From Halorubrum sp. Hd13 (GTDB lineage Archaea > Halobacteriota > Halobacteria > Halobacteriales > Haloferacaceae): DNA of 59,027 nt. The notes below the pieces were generated by a model that was not told the origin of the DNA, did no database searches, and was given only the letters and a program-made list of their open reading frames with translations. Positions 16,100-24,580 of this stretch are shown piece by piece. Position 1 is the first letter of the stretch. Each line of letters begins with the position of its first letter. A program made the translations under genes and the position numbers. The stretch covers positions 1 through 59,027 of the forward strand of contig NZ_NHOY01000043.1 in NCBI RefSeq assembly GCF_002252755.1, given 5' to 3'.

Positions 16100-22010
<5,911 letters not shown>

Positions 22011-22030
22011 CCCCGCCCTGAAGGGCGAGG
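22011..22030 (-). repeat. Right-end hairpin of TnpB element (putative omega RNA 3' end)
   Basis: On the minus strand CCTCGCCCTTCAGGGCGGGG folds as an eight-base stem with one mismatch and a TTCA loop. It begins 21 bases after the tnpB stop. This sequence is typical of the right end of haloarchaeal IS1341-type elements, where the tnpB mRNA 3' end becomes the guide RNA scaffold and the flanking DNA (below 22011) supplies the guide. An identical 20-mer lies at 23593-23612. Confidence 0.7.
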
Positions 22031-22051
22031 ATTCCTCCGGTGGGATGTTGG

Positions 22052-23377
22052 CTATGCCGTACCCACGGAGGCAACTTTCCCGTTGCCGGTACTCTGGTTT
22101 GTGCGCTCCTCGTTGGGACTTTCCCTCTCGGGAGAGTGTGGTGTCTCTGACCAGTTGTGGTCGTCCCACTTGAGGCGCACGGGCCGAGCCATCGACCCAA
22201 CTTCGAGTTCGCAAGCCTGCTGTTCGAGGAATGTCCGGGACGCACACAGATCGGCGTGTGCTTCGTGGCCGCACGGACATCGGAACACGTCGCCGTCGCG
22301 ATCGGTACCCTCTTGTTCGCCACACACCGGGCACGTTCGGGTTGTATTGGCTTCTGACTGCACCTCAATACTGATGCCGTATTCCTCGGCTGTGTACGAT
22401 AAGCGATCGATGAACGCCCGAAAGGCCCAGAACTGGTGAGTCTTTGCGTTCACTTCAGCACACCAGTGCGCCGAGAGAACATCCGTGAGGTCGCCGACGT
22501 ACACTGTCTTGACACCGTCGGCGTAGAGCTGTTCCATCAGGTCCCGGGCTAGTGCCTCCTGTGCGTGGTCGCGCCGCCGTGTCCGTTTCTGATACAGCTG
22601 CCGAATTCGGTTGCTACTGTATCGCCCCTCACGGAGCTTCGACTGTAATCGGGCAATTTCGTCGGTCGTCTCGCGGAAGCGATCAAACAGGTCGCGGCCC
22701 TCGTAGAGGTACTGCTGGCCGGTCGTCGTTGTACAGGCGATGAGATTGTTTGCGCCCACGTCCAGTGCGGCTTCTTCCGAAGCCAGTGGTGAATCCTGTT
22801 GTGAATCAGGCAGGGTAACAGGCTGAAAGGCTCTGAACGTGTCGTCTATCTCGTCGTACTGTATCTCCAAACGACCTTGTTCGCCGTCCCACTTCGGGTC
22901 GCCAGCGACTTCAAGACGGAGGCGACCAGTGTGGTCGTATTCGTCCTTCAGAGCGGACCCGACTGGGATCTCGATGCGTGACCGATCGCCGGTTTCCAGT
23001 GTATACAAGTCGTTCCGGATGAACGTGCGTAGTTCTCGTCCATCATCTTCGTTGCCCCAGTATCCGGGGGGCGAGGGACGTTCATCACGGTCGCCGTTGT
23101 GCCAGTCGTCTAGGGCGGCAAAAAACGAGTTCCACGCAGACTTGTTTTTCCGGATCACTTGCTGTGCGGTTCCAGAGCCGGTCACATCGACATACTGCTT
23201 GCGGTAGTCAGCAGTGTCCCACACTGATTCGCCGTCGAAGAATTGCTGGCGACGCTCGTAATTGAGCTCGTTCCACAGGCTCGCAGAGGCGTCCAACAGA
23301 TCCAACAGTAGCCGCTCGTCGTCGTCGGAGAGCGGGCGTACCGCGAACGTGTTGGTTCGCCTCACGACAACAGACAT
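22052..23377 (-). CDS. tnpB: TnpB family RNA-guided endonuclease-like protein with atypical RuvC-II
   Basis: 441 residues from ATG 23377 (a TTG at 23416 would add 13 unlikely residues). TnpB proteins are guided by an RNA from their own 3' end and cut DNA with a RuvC nuclease, helping IS elements persist. Visible: the N-terminal [20 protein letters not shown]; RuvC-I aspartate Asp206 in [12 protein letters not shown]; a zinc finger with CPVC (349-352) and CPCG (367-370); and the last aspartate Asp376 in EAHADLCAS. The second catalytic residue, usually Glu in an IVVEDL motif, is Gly here ([11 protein letters not shown], about 291-301). Glu308 further on is a possible substitute. The C-terminal 50 residues after the RuvC core are low-complexity. 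The gene is intact. Confidence 0.9.
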
Positions 23378-23415
23378 TTGTAGTCCTACGTCTATATGTC
23401 TTTTGGACACAAACA
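23378..23415. promoter_or_regulatory. 38-bp divergent promoter between tnpB and microgene
   Basis: The whole interval is AT-rich and carries CTATATGTC at about 23390-23398. This lies about 22 to 26 bases before the microgene ATG, the right spacing for a leaderless haloarchaeal transcript. The same AT-rich patch read on the other strand (AAAAGACATATAG) would have to serve tnpB, so the two promoters overlap and binding of a repressor here would affect both genes. Confidence 0.55.
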
Positions 23416-23559
23416 ATGCGACCGAATATCAACATTTCACACACCCTGAACGGCCGCGTGAAAGACTACGCTGAAGATCAAGACGTGAGTCTTGAAGAAG
23501 CCTACCGAGAAATTATCGAAGCAGGATTGGAAGCGGTGGAACATCCAGACGAATCGTAG
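23416..23559 (+). CDS. Ribbon-helix-helix-like microprotein divergent from tnpB
   Basis: 47 residues: [20 protein letters not shown] is followed by [20 protein letters not shown] short N-terminal strand (NINISHTL) followed by two helices is the layout of RHH DNA-binding proteins such as CopG, MetJ or antitoxin N-termini, which bind DNA as dimers. The codon use is less GC-biased than in housekeeping genes, like that of tnpB. It starts 38 bases from tnpB in the opposite direction. Plausible roles are repressor of the element or an orphan antitoxin-like protein; no toxin is next to it. The assignment to RHH rests on pattern only. Confidence 0.72.
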
Positions 23560-23592
23560 CACGTCGGTTGTGGCATTGTGCTGTCGCTTGGA

Positions 23593-23612
23593 CCCCGCCC
23601 TGAAGGGCGAGG
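23593..23612 (-). repeat. Second copy of the 20-bp TnpB right-end hairpin
   Basis: The 20 bases (CCCCGCCCTGAA... on plus) are identical to 22011-22030 and in the same orientation; one base further on, both copies also share TTCC. It lies between the convergent ends of the RHH-like microgene and the RNA-ligase-like gene (stop at 23630). It may be the remnant right end of another element, an extra guide-RNA scaffold, or a shared terminator hairpin. Confidence 0.7.
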
Positions 23613-23629
23613 CTTCCGCTTGCTATCCG

Positions 23630-24580
23630 TCAGCGCTCGTCGAGGAACGCGCTCGCGCGCTCGACGACGGACGCGCGGAACCGGGCGACGTCGACTCCGG
23701 CCGGACCGCTCTCGCCGTCCCCGAACCGGAGGGGCGTCTCCCGGGCGACCGCCTCGACGGTCAGGTCCGCGAGCCGGTCGACCGTCGCCGGCTCTCCGCG
23801 CCGTTCGAGGGCCGCGACGACCCGGTCGAACCGCTCCCGTCCGGCGTGGACCGCGGCGAGTTCGTCGGGGTCGGGAGGGTCCGTGGCCCGGTCGTCTCTC
23901 GCGCGGCCGTCTCCCGCGCCGTCGCCGTCGTCGCTCGGCCCCCTCGAGATCTTCACGCGTCCGCCGCGCTTGTTCCGGACGACGACGCCGGCCGCCGGGC
24001 CGTCGCGCCACGCCGACGCCGGGACCGCGTATCCCTCGGGGTCGAAGTCGCGCGCGTTCACCTCGCGCGCCACCGCGTTTACCGGGGCGAGCCCGACCCC
24101 CTCGAAGATCGCCGCGGCGGCGTCCGGCGGCCGGAACGCCCCGTCCTCCTGACTCTCTCCGTTCCCCTCGCGCTCTCTGTCACCCCCACTCTCTCCGTTC
24201 CCCTCGCGCTCTCCGTCCGCGCCCGTCCACACGTCGGTGCCGAGGAACGGCGGGATCCGGTCCCAGTCGTAGTCGGTCCCGCAGCGGTGGGTGGCGACCC
24301 CGAAGAACGTCACGCCGGCGGGGTCGGCGACGGCCCGCCGGAGCGCCTCGCGGTCGAACCGATCGCGGGCGTGCCGGACCGCGGGTCGGACCGCGGGCGG
24401 GACCGCGTCGAGGTCGTCGTACACCGCCTCCGGACCGCCGAACCGGAGGAGTCCGGACTCGTCCATGCGGAACCGGAGCCCCGTTCCGTCGATCAGTTCG
24501 AGGAGCCAGAGGTGGCCCTCGAGGAGGCCGTCGGGCGGGTCCGCGTCGTCGAGGTCCGGGAGCGGTGGGAACCGGCGCAT
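23630..24580 (-). CDS. RNA ligase-like nucleotidyltransferase-fold protein, motif I lysine absent
   Basis: 316 residues. The region LLELIDGTGLRFRMDESGLLRFGG (about 26-49) resembles motif I of RNA ligases and capping enzymes (K-x-D-G), but the nucleophile position is Leu29. GVTFFGVATHRCGTDYDWDRIPPFLGTDVW resembles motif IIIa, and GVVVRNKRGGRVKIS (198-212) resembles motifs IV and V. If the alignment is right, the protein cannot form the usual lysyl-AMP and is inactive or uses another chemistry. The middle (about 120-150) has a 12-residue duplicated insertion. The C-terminal 100 residues are helical. No partner gene is evident; it stands divergent from the iron alcohol dehydrogenase. The family call is moderate. 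Confidence 0.62.
   Translation of the reverse strand: MRRFPPLPDLDDADPPDGLLEGHLWLLELIDGTGLRFRMDESGLLRFGGPEAVYDDLDAVPPAVRPAVRHARDRFDREALRRAVADPAGVTFFGVATHRCGTDYDWDRIPPFLGTDVWTGADGEREGNGESGGDREREGNGESQEDGAFRPPDAAAAIFEGVGLAPVNAVAREVNARDFDPEGYAVPASAWRDGPAAGVVVRNKRGGRVKISRGPSDDGDGAGDGRARDDRATDPPDPDELAAVHAGRERFDRVVAALERRGEPATVDRLADLTVEAVARETPLRFGDGESGPAGVDVARFRASVVERASAFLDER
24152..24212 (-). repeat. Two 25-bp direct repeats, 36-bp period, inside the ligase-like gene
   Basis: ACTCTCTCCGTTCCCCTCGC and the next five bases occur at 24152-24176 and again at 24188-24212. The 36-bp period keeps frame and encodes a duplicated EREGNGES-type linker, so it is a lineage-specific low-complexity insertion. Confidence 0.85.

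What the first reader, a model, noticed from the sequence alone, without database searches (positions are those of the whole stretch)
22052..23377. TnpB lacking the canonical RuvC-II glutamate
The usual IVVEDL catalytic motif reads [10 protein letters not shown]: Gly replaces the acidic residue, while Asp206, Asp376 and the zinc finger are kept. TnpB normally needs three acidic residues. Either the protein is a nuclease-dead DNA binder, comparable to reported TnpB-derived repressors, or the active site is rearranged with Glu308 (in CAEVNAKTH) taking over. As I recall, similar VGDL motifs occur in other haloarchaeal TnpBs, so it may be a whole subfamily with different chemistry.
Basis: partly seen in the sequence, partly recalled or inferred. 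Interest (0 to 1): 0.72.

Follow-up and report, generated by a model that had tools for sequence, protein, structure and literature searches.

The report
Haloarchaeal TnpB with a relocated glutamate
A jumping-gene nuclease from a salt-loving archaeon looks as if it has lost one of its three cutting residues, but the glutamate sits about 47 residues further on, as in eukaryotic Fanzor enzymes, so it is most likely an active member of a known variant type.

Summary
TnpB (window 22052-23377, minus, 441 aa) has Gly295 where characterised TnpBs have the RuvC-II glutamate; Asp206, Asp376 and the zinc finger are kept. Glu342 ([13 protein letters not shown]-x6-CxxC) is invariant (79/79) and lies just after the last RuvC strand, before the zinc finger. 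This is the published "alternative" glutamate of Fanzors and of a D-phi-G TnpB clade. Of 142 diverse viral-contig TnpBs chosen only on their zinc-finger/RuvC-III motif, all 8 with Gly at the old position have Glu at the new one, and none of 133 with the old Glu has it. So VGDL marks a relocated active site, not a dead enzyme. The element (about 1.63 kb) has a covarying omegaRNA hairpin, a TGAC flank, an empty site in relatives and purifying selection. The experimentally known sot0042 RNAs belong to TnpBs of the same type. Less expected: the element carries a conserved 47-aa ribbon-helix-helix-like gene, head-to-head with tnpB, over lineage-specific operator-like palindromes. I found no description of it in the searched library. 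Cleavage remains untested.

The parts
22001..23628 (-). complete IS200/IS605-type (IS1341-group, tnpA-less) element, about 1628 bp
   Evidence: conserved right end ...GTCAA and left end after TGAC across loci; flanks contiguous without the element in same-genus genomes
22052..23377 (-). tnpB, 441 aa, VGDL / alternative-glutamate type
   Evidence: NF040570 153.7 bits, cut-off 100
22760..22762 (-). codon of Asp206 (RuvC-I)
   Evidence: D in 81/81 relatives
22493..22495 (-). codon of Gly295 at the canonical RuvC-II glutamate position
   Evidence: G in 81/81 relatives; E in 133/142 diverse TnpBs
22352..22354 (-). codon of Glu342, the alternative RuvC-II glutamate (E-x6-CxxC)
   Evidence: E in 79/79 relatives with the column; matches published Ealt
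22250..22252 (-). codon of Asp376 (RuvC-III)
   Evidence: D in 78/79 relatives
22001..22125 (-). scaffold of the putative omegaRNA (3' end of tnpB to the right end)
   Evidence: conserved over 42 loci, fold z-score -3.2 for the region, weak sot0042 match
22011..22030 (-). terminal hairpin of omegaRNA / right end
   Evidence: 96.7% of cells paired, 51 both-sided changes, 0/500 shuffles; identical copy at the left end
21981..22000 (-). predicted guide segment (host sequence just outside the right end)
   Evidence: position only; differs between loci
23593..23612 (-). left-end hairpin
   Evidence: exact second copy of the right-end hairpin, chance expectation 0.02
23629..23632 (-). TGAC flank, likely target site / TAM
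   Evidence: TGAC precedes the left end in most relatives while the rest of the flank varies
23416..23559 (+). 47-aa ribbon-helix-helix-like ORF, head-to-head with tnpB and inside the element
   Evidence: present in 57 distinct elements, median dN/dS 0.074; fold inferred, best PDB match ArtA E 0.14
23397..23409 (.). palindrome TGTC-N5-GACA between the two start codons, operator-like
   Evidence: GTCCAAAAGACAT in 36/47 elements of this RHH type; other RHH types have other motifs there

Best explanation
The protein is an RNA-guided TnpB nuclease of the alternative-glutamate type. Its D-E-D metal site is Asp206-Glu342-Asp376. Glu342 comes from the loop between the last RuvC strand and the zinc-finger (TNB) domain and does the work of the missing RuvC-II glutamate, so that position can be Gly295. 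The element most likely behaves like other IS200/IS605 tnpB elements: the 3' end of tnpB is processed to an omegaRNA ending in ...GTCAA, its guide is the host DNA just outside the right end, and TnpB cuts the empty donor site next to TGAC, which favours retention of the element. Shown here: residue conservation, the reciprocal Gly/Glu swap, omegaRNA hairpin covariation, element ends, empty site, purifying selection. Inferred: cleavage, TAM and guide use.
For: D206 81/81, E342 79/79, D376 78/79, G295 81/81. Reciprocal swap in 142 independently selected TnpBs: Gly295/Glu342 together 8/8, Glu at 295 without Glu at 342 133/133. Same in the host genome: two VGDL TnpBs have Glu at 342, five others have Glu at 295 and Pro at 342. 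Published Ealt definition, six residues before the zinc finger (PMC10711439). The same Gly/Glu signature shows in mimivirus Fanzor2 L79 aligned to a phage relative; active SpuFz1 coordinates metal with D383, E541, D606 (PMC10432273), and the Fanzor Glu lies between the fifth strand and TNB (PMC11423790). AlphaFold2 model pLDDT 83.5: strand 336-341 ends just before Glu342, helix 375-388 carries D376; PDB matches are Cas12f, ISDra2 TnpB and Fanzor2. Covarying hairpin, empty site, dN/dS 0.137. sot0042 RNAs, detected and processed in Halobacterium and Haloferax (PMC8303175), accompany VGDL/Glu TnpBs in all 25 cases where a TnpB on the RNA's own strand was read.
Against: No coordinates were available, so the distance of Glu342 from D206 and D376 was not measured. 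Activity of any haloarchaeal Ealt TnpB is not shown here. 27 of the 109 relatives searched do not match the exact GA[TAG]GTCAA right-end pattern used; many of these end in near variants. The Rfam sot0042 match of this element itself is below the gathering score.
Confidence: 0.88

Rival explanations
1. A nuclease-dead TnpB that binds DNA through its omegaRNA and acts as a repressor, like TldR proteins.
For: The canonical RuvC-II glutamate is missing.
Against: All three residues of the alternative triad are conserved, the protein sits in a complete mobile element with both ends and an empty site, and Gly at 295 never occurs without Glu at 342 in 142 diverse TnpBs.
Confidence: 0.06
2. Glu308 takes over as the RuvC-II residue.
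For: An acidic residue is near the motif in this copy.
Against: Position 308 is Glu in 51/81, Arg in 18 and other residues in the rest; pLDDT is below 50 at 307-309; it varies freely among TnpBs.
Confidence: 0.02
3. The relocated site works but with changed output, for example no trans cleavage, or nicking rather than a double-strand break. This is a refinement of the best explanation, not exclusive of it.
For: The authors of PMC10711439 suggest that the repositioned glutamate may reduce trans cleavage.
Against: Nothing here tests the output.
Confidence: 0.3

Closest known systems
Ealt TnpBs of the D-phi-G clade (PMC10711439)
   Same: Glutamate six residues before the zinc finger, non-proline RuvC-I motif (DVG here), prokaryotic
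   Different: That paper focuses on the DPG pro-Fanzors; in the parts I read I found no account of this haloarchaeal group or its small partner gene
Fanzor2 / pro-Fanzor, e.g. mimivirus L79 (9b0l)
   Same: Gly at the old position and Glu at the new one; matching fold
   Different: No DPG motif here, archaeal host, IS200/IS605-type ends
ISDra2 TnpB (8exa, 8bf8)
   Same: TnpB fold, RuvC and zinc finger, omegaRNA at the 3' end
   Different: Uses the canonical RuvC-II glutamate
sot0042-type haloarchaeal IS1341 TnpB (Rfam RF02656)
   Same: VGDL plus Glu, haloarchaeal, RNA at the 3' end with transcript evidence
   Different: About 30% identical by the own-genome copy; no head-to-head small gene
TldR (TnpB-derived repressors, from memory)
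   Same: Loss of the canonical residue
   Different: Here all three alternative residues are kept

Membership tests
TnpB (RNA-guided, IS200/IS605) | Curated TnpB family models above cut-off | tested here: met
   NF040570 153.7 bits vs 100; PF01385 92.9 vs 30.5; PF07282 58.6 vs 26.3
TnpB (RNA-guided, IS200/IS605) | omegaRNA at the 3' end with structure | tested here: met
   covarying terminal hairpin over 42 loci; transcription of this copy not tested
TnpB (RNA-guided, IS200/IS605) | RNA-guided DNA cleavage | not testable with these tools
   needs purified protein
Ealt TnpB | Glu six residues before the first zinc-finger CxxC and no Glu at the canonical position | tested here: met
   [11 protein letters not shown], Gly295
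Ealt TnpB | Glu342 in the active site with D206 and D376 | tested here: inconclusive
   secondary-structure position fits; no coordinates to measure
Fanzor / pro-Fanzor | DPG at RuvC-I together with Ealt | tested here: not met
   DVG; V, I or M in all 81 relatives
Nuclease-dead TnpB (TldR-like) | Loss of catalytic triad residues | tested here: not met
   D206, E342 and D376 conserved
IS200/IS605 mobile element | Subterminal hairpins at both ends, fixed target motif, empty site | tested here: met
Ribbon-helix-helix repressor (small ORF) | RHH fold | tested here: inconclusive
   no significant Pfam match; ArtA best at E 0.14

The most novel reading that the evidence does not exclude
This TnpB subfamily carries its own dedicated transcription regulator: a 45-48 aa ribbon-helix-helix protein encoded head-to-head with tnpB, binding lineage-specific operators that cover both promoters. 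That would be element-encoded control of an RNA-guided nuclease, with the regulator swapped for another of the same kind in a sister lineage.
Probability: 0.6. Interest if true: 0.5.

Novelty: new member of a known kind. Interest (0 to 1): 0.38.

Why it matters
It shows that a missing RuvC-II glutamate is not enough to call a TnpB dead: VGDL/VGNV goes with Glu seven residues before the zinc finger, a simple test for annotating TnpBs and separating true repressors from active nucleases. It ties the experimentally known haloarchaeal sot RNAs to the Fanzor-type active site, so Haloferax and Halobacterium become tractable hosts for studying it. The small head-to-head gene, if a repressor, would be a way for a mobile element to keep its own RNA-guided nuclease in check.

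Tried and rejected
Glu308 as replacement: rejected on conservation. First AlphaFold2 job with 46 close relatives gave a poor RuvC core (pLDDT 59.6); it was replaced by a 95-sequence diverse alignment (pLDDT 83.5). Two viral-contig pattern scans found nothing because my patterns were out of frame; corrected. Independent origins of the relocated glutamate: a first tree forced at least two changes, but without the trait columns and long branches one origin is not rejected (AU p = 0.34), so I make no claim. The RHH fold was not confirmed by profile searches. The 2023 PNAS census of TnpB, which I recall as reporting rearranged and inactivated catalytic sites in several branches, did not appear in the searches, so it is cited from memory only.

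Full report
The observation. The ORF at 22052-23377 on the minus strand is a full-length TnpB of 441 aa, above the curated cut-offs of NF040570, PF01385 and PF07282. Gly295 stands in YVGDLT where characterised relatives have the RuvC-II glutamate; Asp206, Asp376 and the zinc finger are present.

Which residue replaces it. In 81 distinct relatives, D206 is 81/81, G295 81/81, D376 78/79, but position 308 is E in 51, R in 18 and other residues in the rest. E342, in [12 protein letters not shown], is invariant (79/79). It fits exactly the published pattern of the alternative RuvC-II glutamate, six residues before the zinc finger, which is found in Fanzors, pro-Fanzors and a D-phi-G TnpB clade (PMC10711439). 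E332 is also invariant but lies at the end of the helix before the last strand.

A test not biased by the motif. I collected TnpBs from viral contigs by a pattern in the zinc-finger/RuvC-III region only, extracted 142 distinct proteins, which include a few from earlier viral scans, and aligned them with the family. 133 have Glu at column 295 and none of these has Glu at 342; 8 have Gly at 295 and all 8 have Glu at 342; one has Ser at both (L136). These 8 form one clade, so they are not 8 independent events. The host genome shows the same: two VGDL TnpBs with Glu at 342, five others with Glu at 295 and Pro at 342. Mimivirus Fanzor2 L79, a solved structure, also has Gly then Glu at these places when aligned to a phage relative.

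Structure. With a diverse alignment the AlphaFold2 model reaches pLDDT 83.5, pTM 0.64. Strand 289-296 carries Gly295; strand 336-341 ends right before Glu342; helix 375-388 carries Asp376; residues 307-309 have pLDDT below 50. In Fanzor structures the catalytic glutamate is on the loop between the fifth strand and the TNB domain (PMC11423790), the same place. The best structural matches are Cas12f, ISDra2 TnpB and Fanzor2. Distances could not be measured because coordinates were not released to me.

Element and RNA. Nearly all close relatives share a 3' end TAGCCAACATCCC-ACCGGAGGAATCC-hairpin-GGGAGGA[T/A]GTCAA followed by unrelated host DNA. The terminal hairpin has 96.7% of cells paired, 51 both-sided changes, and a covariation score above all 500 shuffles and all slid controls. 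The left end has the same hairpin and is preceded by TGAC in most loci while the flank beyond varies. Same-genus genomes have the flanks joined without the element. So the element is 22001-23628, without tnpA, and TGAC is the likely TAM. tnpB is under purifying selection, median dN/dS 0.137.

Link to known RNA. The Rfam family sot0042, whose members are detected and processed in Halobacterium and Haloferax (PMC8303175; PMC12558985), has a strong match at the other VGDL TnpB of this genome (138.6 bits). In the 30 best sot0042 loci of the class, every TnpB read on the RNA's own strand (25) is of the VGDL/Glu type (one more, of the canonical type, lies on the other strand, and one tally entry read a chance upstream match). 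This suggests that the long-known haloarchaeal sot RNAs serve alternative-glutamate TnpBs.

An unexpected companion. Between the left end and tnpB, on the other strand, lies a 47-aa ORF (23416-23559) 38 bp from the tnpB start. It occurs in 56 of 58 distinct elements at least 70% identical that have enough upstream sequence, with median dN/dS 0.074. Its sequence pattern looks like a ribbon-helix-helix protein, but profile searches are not significant. A more distant group has a different 45-47 aa ORF in the same place (12 elements). Each type has its own conserved motif between the two start codons: TGTCCAAAAGACA, GACAAGACTTTAGGAC, or CACANGAAC...TTATGTGNGTT. I read this as an element-borne autoregulator; the library searched held no description of it. 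The sot0042-type TnpBs lack it.

Origin. Trees place the haloarchaeal and phage alternative-glutamate TnpBs apart, but after removing the trait columns and long branches one origin is not rejected (AU p = 0.34). I leave this open.

Verdict. Interest is moderate, mainly for the annotation rule, the sot RNA link and the companion gene.

Noticed in passing
23416-23559 (+) and 23397-23409: Conserved 47-aa ribbon-helix-helix-like ORF head-to-head with tnpB, with an operator-like palindrome between the start codons; other lineages have a different small ORF and a different motif there.
   Followed up: yes
18613-21852 (-): gyrB next to the element contains an intein between DSAGG and SAKQGR (PF14890, E 1.9e-19).
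   Followed up: partly
L003 (own genome contig C64): Remnant of a related element: only the last about 60 codons of tnpB plus the omegaRNA/right-end region remain, possibly an omegaRNA-only copy.
   Followed up: no
L136:2347-3393: A viral-contig TnpB with Ser at both glutamate positions, a possible truly inactive TnpB.
   Followed up: no
L384-L413: sot0042 RNA loci of Halobacteria go with VGDL/alternative-glutamate TnpBs wherever a TnpB on the same strand was read.
   Followed up: partly
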